DNA from: a virus
Reading direction: 5' to 3' (one strand)
DNA length: 42,569 bases
IMG/VR virus record: IMGVR_UViG_3300005468_000030
Span: 1-42,569 of that record
Shown here: positions 1,661-7,163 of the stretch, piece by piece
How the letters are laid out: every line of letters starts with the position of its first letter
How positions within the stretch are numbered: position 1 is the stretch's first letter
Program-made: the position numbers and the translations under genes
Notes under the pieces: generated by a model
Seen by the model: only the letters and a program-made list of their open reading frames with translations
What the model was told of the DNA's origin: nothing
Databases searched by the model: none

Positions 1661-1710
1661 CTCAAGTGTCCTGCACCCAGTACCGGCATTTAAAGACGAC
1701 GGTCAATTTC
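1661..1710 (-). ncRNA. 5' half of a circularly permuted group I intron
   Basis: Follows the tRNA 5' exon on the minus strand. The exon end GUU pairs with GAC (1704-1702) across a GAAAUU loop, giving P1 with the U-G wobble required at a group I 5' splice site. AUU in that loop can pair with AAU at the start of the 3' exon (P10). A P2-like hairpin follows. ACUUGA (1667-1662) is complementary over 6 bp to UCAAGU at 1861-1856 in the other half and forms P3. The segment ends two bases before tRNA-Gln, so RNase P cleavage would create its 3' end. Inferred by hand folding. Confidence 0.7.
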
Positions 1711-1787
1711 AACGGTATGACGCTCTGCCGCTGAGCTACCAGCCCACGAAGAGGGCTGGGCAGGATTCGAACCTGCGTCTTCATATT
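1711..1787 (-). tRNA. Permuted tRNA, probable Asn(GTT): 3' half precedes 5' half
   Basis: On the minus strand the 3' half comes first (1787-1753: AA, anticodon strand TATGA, variable AGAC, T-arm GCAGG-TTCGAAT-CCTGC, acceptor CCAGCCC). A 7-base linker TCTTCGT (1752-1746) follows, then the 5' half (1745-1711: acceptor GGGCTGG, D-arm GCTC-AGCGGCA-GAGC, G26, TCATA, CCGTT). Acceptor strands pair 7/7 and anticodon strands 5/5. Joining the halves gives a 70-nt cloverleaf with loop CCGTTAA, anticodon GTT. Oddities are C33 in place of U33 and a U at position 73. A conventional tRNA-Asn(GTT) exists at 9504-9576. Linear reading gives no tRNA. Confidence 0.8.
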
Positions 1788-1942
1788 CGATAGCCGCCGC
1801 CTGGTCGATGCACCAGGCCAGTTTGTTCAGTTATCAGCTTCGAGCAGAAGTCTCAACTTGATCGCCGAACATCTCACCCGGCGTGAATGTTGATCTTCAC
1901 CTTCAGCTTGTGCTCACCCGCTCACGCGGGGGTCTACAGGCT
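1788..1942 (-). ncRNA. 3' half of a circularly permuted group I intron
   Basis: Between the stop of the upstream leftward gene and the tRNA 3' exon. Elements in transcription order: P4 AGCCUGU (1942-1936) with ACAAGCU (1911-1905), one mismatch; P5 CCCGC-GUGA-GCGGG (1930-1917) with a GNRA loop; P6 GUGAA/UUCAC (1900-1883); P7 UGUUCGG (1871-1865) with CUGAACA (1830-1824), 7 bp; 3-nt joint; P3 UCAAGU (1861-1856); P8 UUGAG/CUCGA (1856-1840); P9 CCUGGU/ACCAGG (1817-1800). The intron ends in G (1788), matching the terminal guanosine. Together with the other half it is about 205 nt, the size of compact bacterial tRNA introns. Confidence 0.7.
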
Positions 1943-2678
1943 ACTGGACGAAAACGTAATCCAGCAGCGCGGCGCCGATCGACTTATCGACCGCAGCCGT
2001 CAAGTTCGCGTACTCGCGGGCCACCTTCACAGCCTCCGCAAGCTTCGTAGCCCGATCCAGCCACGCCTTCACCTTCTCGGCAGGCAGAGCACCAGACAGC
2101 TTCACCGTCGTCCACGTACCAGCCGGAACATCCTTGGTGACCTTCTCCACCTGCGCCGGGTGCTTGTCAGTGTGTGGGTACAGGATCACCGGCTCAACGA
2201 TCTTCTCAGACCGCATCGTGTTCACCGGCACCGACTCCCACACCAGCGACGTCGTACTGTACGACCACTCCTCGGCAGGATCCAGCACCGGCAGCTTGCG
2301 GATCAACGTGACCACGTCAAGCAGCTGCTTCTCCAGCCACAGCAGCGTGGTCGCCGGGACGTCGGCGATGAGAACCTGACCGTCCACGATGACGTTGGCC
2401 TTCGCGACACAGTTCGTCGCGTCGATGGTCGCGGTGACGTCGATCAGCCGCTCCCACGCCTTCGTCGCCTGCTCCACCACATCCTGGACGCGGACCTGTA
2501 CCTTCTGCGACTCGCCGGGAAGCTTCGTTCCCTCGTCGTTCAGCGGCTGGTAGGTGCGTCGCTGCCCACCGAACGCGCCACCCTTCTGGATCAGGTGGTA
2601 TTGGGTGGTGATGGTGGCGTTTGCCTCGTTCGCTGCGCCCTTCTTCACGGCAAGCAGCTGGTTCAGCTTGGTAGCCAT
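1941..2678 (-). CDS. Conserved phage protein, function unknown
   Basis: 245 residues, no cysteine-rich or membrane segments. The N-terminal region (MATKLNQLLAVKKG, then QYHLIQK and YQPLNDEGT) recalls a widely distributed actinophage and actinobacterial hypothetical family with an alpha/beta fold, but I cannot assign a role. The start at 2678 follows an AGAGGAG ribosome site; a promoter lies at 2717-2746. The last two codon bases overlap P4 of the permuted intron, so the transcript of this gene probably continues into the ribozyme and tRNA. Confidence 0.75.
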   Translation of the reverse strand: MATKLNQLLAVKKGAANEANATITTQYHLIQKGGAFGGQRRTYQPLNDEGTKLPGESQKVQVRVQDVVEQATKAWERLIDVTATIDATNCVAKANVIVDGQVLIADVPATTLLWLEKQLLDVVTLIRKLPVLDPAEEWSYSTTSLVWESVPVNTMRSEKIVEPVILYPHTDKHPAQVEKVTKDVPAGTWTTVKLSGALPAEKVKAWLDRATKLAEAVKVAREYANLTAAVDKSIGAALLDYVFVQ

Positions 2679-2716
2679 TGAGCTTAAATCTCCTCTTCCC
2701 TTCGGGAACATGTGGA

Positions 2717-3383: not shown

Positions 3384-4304
3384 CTACTTGGAACCGTTCA
3401 AGATGATGTTACCGCTGGAACCGATGATGATCGTGCACTTGTCGCTGCACGCCTTAATCGCCTCCAACTGCAACTGCGCCAACTGAAGCTTCATCCAAGC
3501 ATCGTTCTTGTACAGGTCGTTCAGCTTCCCAGCCGCATCGACCTTCCCCTGAGCCTCTGCCACCGTCGCAGCGGCCATCTCAATGGCCTTCTGCTTCGCG
3601 TTACGGGCCTCCTGAATACCAGGATCAGCGTAATCGACATCCTTGATCGTGATCTCGATGTCCGGGCAGTCCGGCTTCCGGCGATCATACGACGGGCCAC
3701 AGAAATAGCTGCCACCCACCAGACGCTTCAGCTCAGCCGTGAACTGGGTGGCGATCTTCGCCTGCGCCTCAACACGAACACCGTTGATGTTACCCACCAA
3801 CGCGTCCGCGCTGTAACTACGCACCACGTCCTGGATGACCTTCTCCATCACCGGCACGAACGTCTGCACCAGCATGTTACGCCAGCCGTCAGGGTCCTCG
3901 GCGTCGTAGCGGCGTCCGATCTTCTCCCAGAAGTCCTTCAACAGGGCGCCGTCCGAACCACAGTACGTGTTCAGGAAGAAGTTCGTGGTCGGCCACACGT
4001 TGACCTGAACACCCGACGGCTGATTCTCCTCAGGCTTCGTCGACACCGTGATCGGCTTGTTGCTGTCACCGCCGTCAGCCGCAATGTTCCACGTCCGCAG
4101 CGACGTCGGCAGATACACCACCGAGTTGTTCCATTCGGCGTCGCCGGTCTCCCCCGGCTCGATGCACTTGTCGAACTTGTAGCCGTCCGAGTTGCCTTCC
4201 AGGTAATACAACCCCACCTGGTCCGGGTCAGCGATCGTCGAACAACCCGACAACGCGACACCGGCAGCCAGCAGCAAAGCCGCGATGACCGCAATCTTCT
4301 TCAT
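3384..4304 (-). CDS. SPFH/Band-7 domain lipoprotein
   Basis: 306 residues. Residues 1-20 form a lipoprotein signal (MKKIAVIAALLLAAG then the lipobox ALSGC), so the protein should be lipid-anchored on the outer face of the cytoplasmic membrane. The middle resembles the SPFH/prohibitin-stomatin fold, and residues of about 225-280 (QEARNAKQKAIEMAAATVAE onward) form the Ala/Gln/Glu-rich coiled coil typical after that domain. Role in phage is unknown. It is the last gene of a coupled operon (5572 to 3384), with a terminator after it. The ATG at 4304 is preferred because it places the lipobox at the usual distance. Confidence 0.8.
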   Translation of the reverse strand: MKKIAVIAALLLAAGVALSGCSTIADPDQVGLYYLEGNSDGYKFDKCIEPGETGDAEWNNSVVYLPTSLRTWNIAADGGDSNKPITVSTKPEENQPSGVQVNVWPTTNFFLNTYCGSDGALLKDFWEKIGRRYDAEDPDGWRNMLVQTFVPVMEKVIQDVVRSYSADALVGNINGVRVEAQAKIATQFTAELKRLVGGSYFCGPSYDRRKPDCPDIEITIKDVDYADPGIQEARNAKQKAIEMAAATVAEAQGKVDAAGKLNDLYKNDAWMKLQLAQLQLEAIKACSDKCTIIIGSSGNIILNGSK

Positions 4305-4306
4305 GT

Positions 4307-4426
4307 TCACTCAGGCCCCTTCTTAACCTTGAACATCCATTTCACGAACCTGGCTACGATCGCAGCCAGGAGACCAACCCCGACGATTCCCGTCGCTAGG
4401 GCCAAGAAGATGAACACGCCCTTCAT
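4307..4426 (-). CDS. 39-residue membrane mini-protein
   Basis: One transmembrane helix (about residues 3-25, VFIFLALATGIVGVGLLAAI) followed by a basic tail (RFVKWMFKVKKGPE), giving a predicted inside C-terminus. ATG overlaps the stop of the phosphatase gene, and its own stop lies 2 bases before the lipoprotein ATG, which argues for a real coupled gene despite its size. Confidence 0.6.
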   Translation of the reverse strand: MKGVFIFLALATGIVGVGLLAAIVARFVKWMFKVKKGPE

Positions 4427-4929
4427 GCCGACGCCCCCAGCAGATACCGAACGAAGTGGATGTTGCACAGTGCCCATGGTCCGCGTGCAGCCCGCACCAT
4501 TTCGATGGCCTCACGTGGCGTGTGGCCCATCTCGATCAACGCGAAGCCGACGACAAGCCCGGAACGGTTGTAGCCCGCCTGGCAGCGAACTAGAACCTTA
4601 TCGCCCAGCTGCGTCATCCCGGCGACCTCAAGGGCGAACAGGCGAACCTTAGCCAGCTCAGCCGCCGACAGCAGACCATCAGGAATCCGGTAATGCTCAT
4701 GCCATACGCCTGGATCAGGGCCGTTGCCGTCGTTGTCCCAGAAGAACGAGAACACACGATCGAATTCGTCACGAACCAAAACATGCTGATCTTTGTAGCT
4801 GGCGCCACGCTTCAGCTGGCCGCCCTGCCACAGACCAGGCATAACCTGATCCCAGCCGTTGACCGGCCACGGGATGCCAACCCCAGTAGACGGCGGAATC
4901 AGATCCTCAGGTATGTCGATGTCGGTCAT
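4423..4929 (-). CDS. Dual-specificity/tyrosine-type protein phosphatase
   Basis: 168 residues. The signature CX5R loop is present as VRCQAGYNRSG, with the nucleophile Cys116 and Arg122, followed by the expected helix. A preceding Asp near residue 84 (YRIPDG) is a candidate general acid. Family members hydrolyse phosphotyrosine, phosphoserine/threonine or phosphoinositides. The start overlaps the previous mini-gene stop (ATGA). Lying between two mini membrane proteins and upstream of a Band-7 lipoprotein, it may act at the membrane on host signalling; this is inference. Confidence 0.85.
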   Translation of the reverse strand: MTDIDIPEDLIPPSTGVGIPWPVNGWDQVMPGLWQGGQLKRGASYKDQHVLVRDEFDRVFSFFWDNDGNGPDPGVWHEHYRIPDGLLSAAELAKVRLFALEVAGMTQLGDKVLVRCQAGYNRSGLVVGFALIEMGHTPREAIEMVRAARGPWALCNIHFVRYLLGASA

Positions 4930-5018
4930 CGCGAGAAAGCCCCCGACCACAGCAGCAACATCACTGCCATGAACACGAGAGAGCCCAACAGAGCGGGCAG
5001 GAAATAGCGTGGCATCAT
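4926..5018 (-). CDS. 30-residue membrane mini-protein
   Basis: Sequence starts MMPRYFLPALLG and contains one hydrophobic helix (residues 5-26) with a short basic end. Its ATG overlaps the stop of the 185-residue gene and its TGA overlaps the phosphatase ATG, so it exactly fills the gap in the operon. No homology claim is possible at this length. Confidence 0.55.
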   Translation of the reverse strand: MMPRYFLPALLGSLVFMAVMLLLWSGAFSR

Positions 5019-5572
5019 GACGGGTTCGCGGCCTTTTCACCTAGGTAAGAGAACCGGACAGCGGCGGCGATCTGCTCGAACGACCAGTCCATCGAATCGT
5101 TCGCATTCATAGCCGTAACACCGATTTGTCCATGATCAGAATCAAGGAGCTGGCGCCAGCGGGCCACGACAGGATTCTGGCTATCAAAACCAAGCCACCG
5201 GGCCGTCGCCGCATTCATCACGCTACGATTGACCTCATCTGCGTCTGATGAACCATTCCACATGTAGACACGTTCCTGGAACGGGGCATGAATGGCTGTC
5301 GGATTATGGAACGTCAACGGGTGACAGCACACCACCACCCTCGGCTCCATCGGAACACCGTCGGCAGCCGCCAGAAGGTTCGCCACCTCCAGGCAGCAAA
5401 CCTTCTGGCTGCCGTCCTCTTCGATACGGCACAGACGCTGTTTGCCCTGCTGATAGTTGCCTGATTCGAGGGCCTCAACCCACAGGCGCACGCGATCCAA
5501 GTTCAAGCTGGGCTGAACCTCGGACTCCAACAGCGGCACCAACTGGTCCAAGAACTCTTGATCAACAGCCAT
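5015..5572 (-). CDS. Hypothetical protein, first gene of phosphatase/Band-7 operon
   Basis: 185 residues, soluble, with a cysteine pair (VCCLEV and VVVCCHP). I do not recognise the family. It begins 26 bases after the terminator hairpin at 5598-5631 and overlaps the next mini-gene. Ribosome site GGGGGAAGGG precedes the start. Confidence 0.65.
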   Translation of the reverse strand: MAVDQEFLDQLVPLLESEVQPSLNLDRVRLWVEALESGNYQQGKQRLCRIEEDGSQKVCCLEVANLLAAADGVPMEPRVVVCCHPLTFHNPTAIHAPFQERVYMWNGSSDADEVNRSVMNAATARWLGFDSQNPVVARWRQLLDSDHGQIGVTAMNANDSMDWSFEQIAAAVRFSYLGEKAANPS

Positions 5573-5651: not shown

Positions 5652-7163
5652 TTACTTGCCGCCGTGGCCGTTGACAGCCACCAGCGTGCCGTCGCCGTCG
5701 ACCTCCACGCGGTGCTCACGCAGCGTCGAACCGAAGTGCTTCTTCAACGCCTCGCCCACCGAATCGATGTTCGACGCCAGAGGCGCATCCTCCATCATCT
5801 TCACCTGCGTCCGGATACCGTTCGCAGCATCCACCAGATCACTGGTGGTGATGACCTGCGGGACGCCGCCGGAACGGGCAATCGCGTACCGCTGTGCCCG
5901 GTCGATGGCTTCCTTCGCGAAAGCCGGAAGCAGGCCGTCGAACCCAGCCGCCACCGCCTTCCAGTCCAGATCCTCCGACCGCAGAAGCTCCGGTACCGTC
6001 GCCTCCACCAGCCGACGGACACCGCCAGCATCCAAGCCGCCCAGCTCGATGACAGCGTCGAGACGACCCGGCCGCATCATGCCCCGGTGCAGCTTGTCAG
6101 GGTGGTTGGTGGTGAACAGCGCCATCACCTCCACGCCCTTGTTGGTGACACCGTCGAGAACATCCAGCAGATGTGCGACGCCTTCGGTGTGGCTGGTCTT
6201 GATGACGTCGATGTCCTCGAACATCACCACAGCCGGTGCGTACACCTGCGCGGTCTTCAACGCCCCGTACAGGTCGTCTTCGGGGCGCACCTGGATGTAG
6301 GTGAACCCGTTGGCTTCGGCCTGCTGTGCGGTGAGCATCCCAGCGAGGGTCTTGCCGGTACCGTACGGCCCGTACAGCAGCACCTGCCGCTTGATCGGCA
6401 GGCCGGTGGCCCGCAGCGCATCCGTGTACTTGATCGCCGACCAGACGTTGGCGTCGAGCTGACGCATCACCTCGTCGGAGTAGATCACCTTCGACGGGTC
6501 GACGGTCTTCGTGTTCAGGAACATCGGCACTTGGGCGGCGGTGATGGCCTTGCCCCGGTAGATCGACGTCTGCTTCAGCTCGTCTTCGATGACCTGGAAG
6601 AACGCCTCGATGTGGGACCGGTACTTCTTCGGTGCTTGCACCGAAAGATAGAACACGGGACCCAGTTCGGGGTTCATGGTTCCGTTGAGGGTGAACGTGG
6701 CGTCGAGCGGTTTGAACCCGACCCGTCCCCACGGAACCTGCATGGTCTCGTTGTGGCTGATGTTGATCGTCTCGTACTGCGGCGGGTACTGGCCGAAGAA
6801 GGTGCGGGTGACCTTGCCGATGCCAGTGGTGCCAAACAGGCGCTTCATGCCCCGGTCGAACGCGGCGGCGCCGTCCCACGGCCGGAACTTGAACTCGCGG
6901 CCGTATTCGTAGGTTTCCTCCTGCGCCTCCTGCCAGTCCTCCAGGTAGCTGATGGCGTCTTCGACGCGGCCCTGCATGTTGGCGGGGAGGATGAACTTGG
7001 TTCCCTCGAAGACGAGGGCGTCGTCCTGGACCCGCAGGCCGCCGAGCTTGCTGAGGGTGGAGAGGATTTCTTCCTGAAGCTTCTGGTTCTCGGTCTTCTC
7101 GGCAGCCTTGGCGCTTACGGCTTCCGCTGTGGCCTTGGCGAGGATTTCTTTGATGCCGTCCAT
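5652..7163 (-). CDS. AAA+ ATPase
   Basis: 503 residues. An N-terminal region with coiled-coil character is followed by a AAA+ module: Walker A GPYGTGKT (265-272), Walker B VVMFEDID (312-319), sensor-1 TTNH (351-354) and the RPGRLD arginine-finger motif (364-369), as in classical AAA (FtsH/Cdc48-like) ATPases. No protease or nuclease domain is attached. Such proteins unfold or remodel protein substrates; the substrate is unknown. It has its own promoter (7201-7228) and terminators on both sides, so it is a one-gene unit. Confidence 0.9.
   Translation of the reverse strand: MDGIKEILAKATAEAVSAKAAEKTENQKLQEEILSTLSKLGGLRVQDDALVFEGTKFILPANMQGRVEDAISYLEDWQEAQEETYEYGREFKFRPWDGAAAFDRGMKRLFGTTGIGKVTRTFFGQYPPQYETINISHNETMQVPWGRVGFKPLDATFTLNGTMNPELGPVFYLSVQAPKKYRSHIEAFFQVIEDELKQTSIYRGKAITAAQVPMFLNTKTVDPSKVIYSDEVMRQLDANVWSAIKYTDALRATGLPIKRQVLLYGPYGTGKTLAGMLTAQQAEANGFTYIQVRPEDDLYGALKTAQVYAPAVVMFEDIDVIKTSHTEGVAHLLDVLDGVTNKGVEVMALFTTNHPDKLHRGMMRPGRLDAVIELGGLDAGGVRRLVEATVPELLRSEDLDWKAVAAGFDGLLPAFAKEAIDRAQRYAIARSGGVPQVITTSDLVDAANGIRTQVKMMEDAPLASNIDSVGEALKKHFGSTLREHRVEVDGDGTLVAVNGHGGK

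What the first reader, a model, noticed from the sequence alone, without database searches (positions are those of the whole stretch)
1661..1942. Permuted tRNA embedded in a circularly permuted group I intron
Seen: the tRNA 3' half (1787-1753) precedes the 5' half (1745-1711) with a 7-base linker, 7/7 acceptor and 5/5 anticodon-stem pairing. The flanks give P1 with a U-G splice-site pair, P3 (6 bp, between the two flanks), P4, P5 with GNRA loop, P6, P7 (7 bp) with a 3-nt joint to P3, P8, P9, a terminal G and a short P10, in group I order once rotated, about 205 nt in total. Inference: splicing would join the exons into a circular tRNA precursor closed by UCUUCGU, opened later by RNase P and 3' processing. 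The intron breaks between P3 and P4, and its 3' end would be made by RNase P cutting tRNA-Gln two bases away. Known context: permuted tRNA genes occur in red algae and some archaea with protein splicing; permuted intron-exon arrangements were first built artificially. A natural self-splicing phage version is exciting; I cannot check how far it has been described.
Basis: partly seen in the sequence, partly recalled or inferred. Interest (0 to 1): 0.95.

Follow-up and report, generated by a model that had tools for sequence, protein, structure and literature searches.

The report
Permuted tRNA-like RNA paired with DUF7873
The reversed tRNA halves are real, but they are the tRNA-shaped head of a conserved small RNA that travels with one unstudied protein (DUF7873) in phages and in many Streptomyces genomes, and not a tRNA cut out by a self-splicing intron.

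Summary
The permuted tRNA halves at 1787-1711 (-) are real: 7/7 acceptor, 5/5 anticodon-stem, T- and D-arm pairs. The group I intron reading fails. The flanks are one side of a covarying nested rod: 6-bp helix C, loop AUCGACC/UUAAAUGCCG, 9-bp helix B, asymmetric loop, anticodon-like stem, permuted tRNA-like head. A covariance model built from 35 relatives without the window hits 1818-1675 at 109.6 bits (E 2.7e-24). 28 of 29 pairs show compensatory changes. No covarying crossing P3/P7-like helix appears. Position 33 is U in 12/38 modules against 135/143 ordinary tRNAs, so these are not decoding tRNAs.

The RNA lies directly downstream of a DUF7873 (PF25283) gene, here 2711-1941. The same pairing holds in 72/80 phage loci and 77/80 bacterial loci. 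In 81 genomes of one Streptomyces-containing family, all 49 with DUF7873 carry the RNA; of 32 without it, one does. No Rfam family describes it. Nearest kin by architecture is the bacterial Y RNA YrlA, which also has a permuted tRNA-like domain (47.6 bits here, cut-off 69).

Most likely DUF7873 and the RNA form a Y-RNA-like tRNA-mimic ribonucleoprotein. Pairing and structure are shown; binding, processing and function are inferred.

The parts
1941..2711 (-). DUF7873 (PF25283) protein gene, obligate neighbour of the RNA; true start may be an internal ATG about 11 codons in
   Evidence: Pfam PF25283 302.5 bits; 42-sequence alignment; AlphaFold2 mean pLDDT 91
1675..1940 (-). whole non-coding RNA region (ends not mapped)
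   Evidence: conserved from the DUF7873 stop to helix C in relatives
1917..1930 (-). 5' hairpin CCCGC-GUGA-GCGGG, followed by conserved GAGCACAAGCUGAA
   Evidence: read from sequence; similar hairpin and motif in single-module relatives
1868..1891 (-). short hairpin at the place where many relatives carry a first permuted tRNA-like module (PT1)
   Evidence: comparison with one-module and two-module loci; inferred
1675..1818 (-). PT2 domain: permuted tRNA-like head on a nested rod
   Evidence: R1 model 109.6 bits, E 2.7e-24
1810..1815 (-). helix C, 5' strand UGGUGC (pairs with 1683-1678)
   Evidence: covarying in relatives; 6/6 in window
1803..1809 (-). conserved internal-loop strand AUCGACC
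   Evidence: alignment A3
1794..1802 (-). helix B, 5' strand AGGCGGCGG (pairs with 1702-1694)
   Evidence: partner-swap z 12.2; 9/9 in window by inspection
1781..1785 (-). anticodon-like stem, 3' strand UAUGA (pairs with 1720-1716)
   Evidence: partner-swap z 7.8
1760..1776 (-). T-arm GCAGG-UUCGAAU-CCUGC
1739..1759 (-). acceptor hairpin CCAGCCC - UCUUCGU - GGGCUGG (permuted acceptor stem with linker)
   Evidence: 7/7 pairs; helix 4 of A3, 99.6% of cells paired with compensatory changes in all 7 pairs
1722..1736 (-). D-arm GCUCAGCGGCAGAGC
1716..1720 (-). anticodon-like stem, 5' strand UCAUA
1703..1715 (-). internal-loop strand CCGUUGAAAUUGA (family pattern YURARAYUGA)
   Evidence: alignment A3
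1694..1702 (-). helix B, 3' strand CCGUCGUCU
1684..1693 (-). conserved internal-loop strand UUAAAUGCCG
   Evidence: alignment A3
1678..1683 (-). helix C, 3' strand GUACUG

Best explanation
Window 1818-1675 (-) is the head-and-stem domain of a conserved non-coding RNA encoded directly downstream of a DUF7873 gene. The RNA is a rod of nested helices capped by a tRNA-like fold whose halves are permuted; many relatives carry a second such head. Shown: structure, covariation, adjacency and co-occurrence with DUF7873. Inferred: the protein and RNA form one ribonucleoprotein that works like bacterial Ro60(Rsr)-YrlA. In that scheme the rod holds the protein and the tRNA-like head docks tRNA-handling proteins, for RNA quality control or repair. 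Also inferred: in phage versions with an encoded NCCA, RNase P and tRNA 3' processing open the acceptor linker, so the RNA works in two or three base-paired pieces with a tRNA-like CCA end. It is neither a self-splicing intron nor a decoding tRNA.
For: Model R1, built from 35 relatives without the window, finds the window at 109.6 bits against at most 39.4 for tandem tRNAs. 28/29 pairs have changes on both sides; 95.3% of cells pair, against 63.5% shuffled and at most 43.8% slid. Partner-swap z: B 12.2, C 8.2, anticodon-like stem 7.8, controls about 0. R1 hits lie just downstream of DUF7873, same strand, in 72/80 phage loci at 54 bits or more and 77/80 bacterial loci at 84 bits or more. In 81 genomes of one family, all 49 with full DUF7873 have the RNA; 1 of 32 others has a full-length hit. 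An apparently unlinked RNA exists in Herpetosiphon aurantiacus. YrlA Rfam match 47.6 bits, of which 14 bits come from the flanking stem. Sister phages Trina (Ro gene plus modules) and NiceHouse (DUF7873 plus RNA) differ at one locus between homologous flanks. Encoded NCCA in 52/85 phage modules against 31/143 ordinary tRNAs nearby. A homing HNH gene (L066) or a whole tRNA (L089) sits inside the acceptor linker.
Against: No binding or expression data. DUF7873 has no fold match at E<=1e-3, so an RNA-binding role is not shown. The YrlA match is below the family's cut-off, and other members score 23-38 bits, close to tandem-tRNA artefacts. NCCA is encoded in only 2/51 bacterial modules and not in the window, so split-and-CCA processing may not be general. 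Ro co-occurs with DUF7873 in 6/49 records, so simple replacement of Ro is not strict.
Confidence: 0.7

Rival explanations
1. Permuted tRNA gene inside a circularly permuted group I intron; self-splicing joins the exons into a circular pre-tRNA.
For: Permuted halves are real; flanks are conserved RNA of about 205 nt; hairpin with GNRA loop at 1930-1917.
Against: Covarying flank helices are nested; an unconstrained scan of up to 100 nt upstream and 110 nt downstream of the head finds only C and B. No group I match (weak test). U33 not kept. Tandem modules about 150 nt apart leave no room for one intron each.
Confidence: 0.03
2. Genuine permuted pre-tRNA that a protein (perhaps DUF7873) cuts at the internal loop above helix B and a ligase closes, giving a functional tRNA.
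For: tRNA core and acceptor stem fully kept; NCCA in 52/85 phage modules; an asymmetric loop lies at the anticodon end.
Against: Position 33 is U in 12/38 phage and 4/51 bacterial modules; no constant anticodon loop can be rebuilt; the RNA is single-copy in the bacterial genomes checked.
Confidence: 0.1
3. A true YrlA (bacterial Y RNA) whose partner is Ro60/Rsr, encoded elsewhere in the phage or by the host; DUF7873 is an accessory.
For: Best Rfam match is YrlA; related Ro-encoding phages carry permuted modules beside the Ro gene.
Against: No TROVE gene in the window record (a fragment), nor in complete Phendrix, Mimi and NiceHouse. Ro-linked modules match R1 only in the tRNA core. RNA presence tracks DUF7873 49/49.
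Confidence: 0.12
4. Toxin-antitoxin-like pair in which the tRNA-like RNA restrains or is targeted by DUF7873.
For: Obligate protein-RNA pair in bacteria and phages.
Against: No nuclease or toxin family match; stable single chromosomal copies beside conserved neighbours in a Streptomyces group.
Confidence: 0.05

Closest known systems
YrlA, bacterial Y RNA (Rfam RF02553)
   Same: tRNA-like domain in permuted order (T-arm, acceptor hairpin, D-arm) on a stem with an internal loop
   Different: window 47.6 bits against cut-off 69; lacks YrlA's inner 7-bp helix, has helix C beyond B, often two heads, and its constant partner is DUF7873 rather than Ro/TROVE
Ro-linked permuted modules of phages (Cece, Trina, Atuin, prophiGD43A-5)
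   Same: same permuted tRNA core, often near tRNA clusters and a Band-7 gene
   Different: different flanking stem (5' GGUUAUC motif) and Ro protein next door; R1 matches only the core
Two-piece (permuted) tmRNA
   Same: permuted gene whose acceptor linker would be cut so that the RNA works in pieces
   Different: full D-arm, no tag reading frame seen, different stem
Permuted tRNA genes of red algae and archaea
   Same: 3' half encoded before 5' half, acceptor ends joined by a linker
   Different: no bulge-helix-bulge splice motif recognised, no reconstructable anticodon loop
Group I introns in tRNA anticodon loops
   Same: position near the anticodon loop and total length
   Different: nested flank helices; no conserved P3/P7 pseudoknot found

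Membership tests
DUF7873-linked RNA (this report, model R1) | full-length covariance-model match built without the window | tested here: met
   109.6 bits, E 2.7e-24
DUF7873-linked RNA (this report, model R1) | directly downstream of a DUF7873 gene, same strand | tested here: met
   gene 2711-1941, PF25283 302.5 bits; RNA domain starts at 1818
Group I intron (RF00028) | covariance-model match | tested here: inconclusive
   no match at E<=10, but sensitivity is low and the rotated sequence could not be run
Group I intron (RF00028) | P3/P7 pseudoknot kept by covariation | tested here: not met
   only nested helices C and B covary around the head; domain 1 upstream was not resolved
Group I intron (RF00028) | GTP-dependent self-splicing | not testable with these tools
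   needs in vitro transcription
YrlA / Y RNA (RF02553) | score at or above the gathering cut-off of 69 bits | tested here: not met
   47.6 bits; relatives 23-38 bits
YrlA / Y RNA (RF02553) | permuted tRNA-like domain on a closing stem | tested here: met
   Rfam alignment and R1 structure
YrlA / Y RNA (RF02553) | Ro60/Rsr (TROVE) partner | tested here: inconclusive
   none in the window or in the overlapping contig record (both fragments); none in complete Phendrix, Mimi, NiceHouse; binding not testable
Functional (decoding) tRNA | 7-nt anticodon loop with U33 | tested here: not met
   window has C at 33; U in 12/38 phage and 4/51 bacterial modules
tmRNA (RF00023) | Rfam or ARAGORN match with tag reading frame | tested here: not met
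   no tmRNA in the window

The most novel reading that the evidence does not exclude
An undescribed class of bacterial and phage ribonucleoprotein: an RNA with one or two permuted, tRNA-shaped heads (cut open at the acceptor end in some versions) and its dedicated protein DUF7873, present in about 60% of the sampled genomes of one Streptomyces-containing family and shared with tRNA-rich phages.
Probability: 0.6. Interest if true: 0.87.

Novelty: new variant of a known kind. Interest (0 to 1): 0.78.

Why it matters
It gives a protein family of unknown function a specific RNA partner, and shows that tRNA mimicry by permuted RNAs is wider than the Ro/Y RNA system, common in Streptomyces chromosomes and in phages. 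The pair is directly testable in laboratory Streptomyces. Ordinary tRNA finders miss it because the halves are reversed.

Tried and rejected
Group I intron: no Rfam match (weak control) and wrong topology. Plain YrlA membership: below cut-off, and tandem ordinary tRNAs give 22-30 bits by themselves, so weak YrlA scores were not counted. Chance tandem-tRNA junction: rejected by 7/7 acceptor pairing and R1. Decoding tRNA: U33 absent. Simple replacement of Ro by DUF7873: weakened by 6/49 records with both. DUF7873 fold search: nothing at E<=1e-3 in PDB or BFVD. Helix E outside C: only z 2-3, not claimed. Structure of the upstream domain (around PT1) not resolved: my RNAalifold run returned no fold. 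DNA search of phages with the whole region: no match. The Chen 2014 and Wolin review papers on YrlA are not held. No held paper mentions DUF7873.

Full report
WHAT WAS CLAIMED.

OBSERVATION. The reversed tRNA is there. On the minus strand: anticodon-like 3' strand UAUGA (1785-1781), T-arm (1776-1760), acceptor 3' strand CCAGCCC (1759-1753), linker UCUUCGU, acceptor 5' strand GGGCUGG (1745-1739), UA, D-arm (1736-1722), anticodon-like 5' strand UCAUA (1720-1716); 7/7, 5/5, 4/4 and 5/5 pairs. Rfam's best match is YrlA, the bacterial Y RNA, over 1800-1693 at 47.6 bits, E 1.4e-8, below its curated cut-off of 69. The tRNA-like part alone gives 33.6 bits, so the flanking stem adds 14. No group I match appears even at E<=10 in 1600-1960. 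That negative is weak by itself: the intact T4 nrdB intron gives only 35.7 bits with the same model.

RELATIVES. The gene directly upstream (2711-1941) is DUF7873, PF25283, 302.5 bits. Phages with DUF7873 (Fryberger, NiceHouse, PA-SR01, Phendrix, Mimi, TM21B, D505) have an unannotated stretch after it with one or two permuted tRNA modules. A search of viral contigs with a DUF7873 alignment gave 368 relatives, 80 kept. A strict scan found permuted modules within 900 nt downstream in 63 of 80 loci, typically PT1 at +50 to +150 and PT2 about 150 nt further. Nine loci had a hit in the upstream flank, all weak 6-bp ones. The window belongs to the one-module class: PT2 at +165, with a short hairpin where PT1 would be.

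STRUCTURE. For 38 PT2 loci I tested whether flank strands pair better with their own partner than with another locus's strand. Helix B: 7.24 of 8 against 5.84, z 12.2. Helix C: z 8.2. Anticodon-like stem: z 7.8. Mispaired controls: about 0. RNAalifold on 35 relatives without the window found helices C, B, T, acceptor and D unaided. Counting pairs: 95.3% of cells paired, 28/29 pairs changed on both sides, covariation score 0.863 against 0.239 shuffled and at most 0.163 slid. An unconstrained search over the two flanks found only C and B. The order is C - AUCGACC - B - loop - stem - permuted tRNA - stem - YURARAYUGA - B' - UUAAACGCCG - C', a nested rod. This is not the crossing P3/P7 arrangement of group I introns. 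The swap and shuffle tests do not correct for relatedness, but the slid controls do, and there the score collapses.

MEMBERSHIP OF THE WINDOW. Model R1, built from those 35 relatives, hits window 1818-1675 at 109.6 bits, E 2.7e-24, over its full length. The best other hit is 39.4 bits, a tandem of ordinary tRNAs.

PAIRING WITH DUF7873. R1 hits at 54 bits or more lie just downstream of DUF7873 in 72 of 80 phage loci. DUF7873 is also in at least 513 bacterial genome loci; the 80 kept are mostly Streptomyces and other actinobacteria, with Herpetosiphon and a Ktedonobacterales genome too. R1 finds the RNA in 77 of the 80, at 84 bits or more; the three misses are all Herpetosiphon. In ten whole genomes checked there is exactly one RNA each, including Herpetosiphon aurantiacus, where it appears to lie away from the gene. 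In 81 genomes of the family of S. himastatinicus, 49 have full-length DUF7873 and all 49 have a full-length R1 match beside it. Of the other 32, one has a full-length match (59 bits) and three have core-only matches (sets compared by eye). So the RNA and the protein behave as an obligate pair, and not as a phage peculiarity.

NOT A DECODING tRNA. Position 33 is U in 12/38 phage modules and 4/51 bacterial modules, against 135/143 ordinary tRNAs in the same phage loci.

POSSIBLE PROCESSING. In phage versions the linker begins with NCCA in 52 of 85 modules, against 31 of 143 ordinary tRNAs nearby. In bacterial versions only 2 of 51 do, and the window does not. One locus has an HNH gene with homing-endonuclease repeats inside a PT1 linker (L066 2666-3226), another a whole tRNA-Arg (L089). 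Both fit a linker that is cut away, as in two-piece tmRNA. This is inference.

RELATION TO Ro/Y RNA. 344 phage records encode a Ro (TROVE) protein. Several carry permuted modules beside it (Cece, Trina, Atuin, prophiGD43A-5). Those modules match R1 only in the tRNA core and have a different stem. Trina (Ro) and NiceHouse (DUF7873), same genus, differ at one locus between homologous flanks. Six of 49 DUF7873 records also have TROVE, so the exclusion is not strict. Reviews in the held library describe YrlA as a stem that tethers Rsr and a tRNA-like domain that binds PNPase (PMC8394870), and Ro/TROVE in jumbo phages as an RNA-repair platform with a tRNA-like partner (PMC7824862).

MECHANISM. Most likely DUF7873 binds the rod, and the permuted tRNA-like head docks a tRNA-handling protein, in the manner of Ro-YrlA. 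Structure, adjacency and co-occurrence are shown; binding, processing and function are inferred. AlphaFold2 gives DUF7873 a confident fold (pLDDT 91) with no match at E<=1e-3 in PDB or BFVD.

NOVELTY. No Rfam family covers the RNA, and no held paper mentions DUF7873; preprints and most subscription journals were not searchable. By architecture it is a new variant of the Y-RNA-like permuted tRNA mimics, with a different obligate partner.

Noticed in passing
L037 1233, 2138, 2357; L039 2284; L010 854, 998, 1140; L009 844, 1005, 1167; L038 1698; L040 2023: Unannotated permuted tRNA-like modules, often in tandem, next to phage Ro-like genes, most with a 5' GGUUAUC-type motif; probably phage Y RNAs.
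   Followed up: partly
L007 1007-1061 (Microbacterium phage Percival): Permuted module scoring 60 bits with R1 directly after tRNA-Lys, in a complete genome with no TROVE match; its stem is short.
   Followed up: no
   Followed up: no
L066 2666-3226; L089 2677-2772: An HNH gene with homing-endonuclease repeats, and a complete tRNA-Arg, sit inside the acceptor linker of a permuted module.
   Followed up: yes
window 3384-4310, 4423-5040, 5652-7163 (-): Band-7-like, dual-specificity-phosphatase-like and AAA proteins between DUF7873 and the tRNA cluster; Band-7 genes also sit beside Ro genes in Cece and Trina and near DUF7873 in NiceHouse.
   Followed up: partly
L183 2622-3617; L197 553-1722: ADP-ribosylglycohydrolase gene next to DUF7873 in Herpetosiphon and in S. 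himastatinicus.
   Followed up: no
L004 (IMGVR_UViG_3300005444_000012): 48.7-kb contig encoding the first 73 residues of the window's DUF7873 at 100% identity at its edge; probably overlaps the window.
   Followed up: partly
phage search: 285 Vibrio phage records match a short piece of the permuted tRNA; most of the 344 matching records are at 99% identity or more; not examined.
   Followed up: no
BFVD A0A7M1RW91: Weak structural match of DUF7873 to an uncharacterised protein of uncultured phage cr118_1 (probability 1.00, E 5e-3, TM 0.58 on the target).
   Followed up: no
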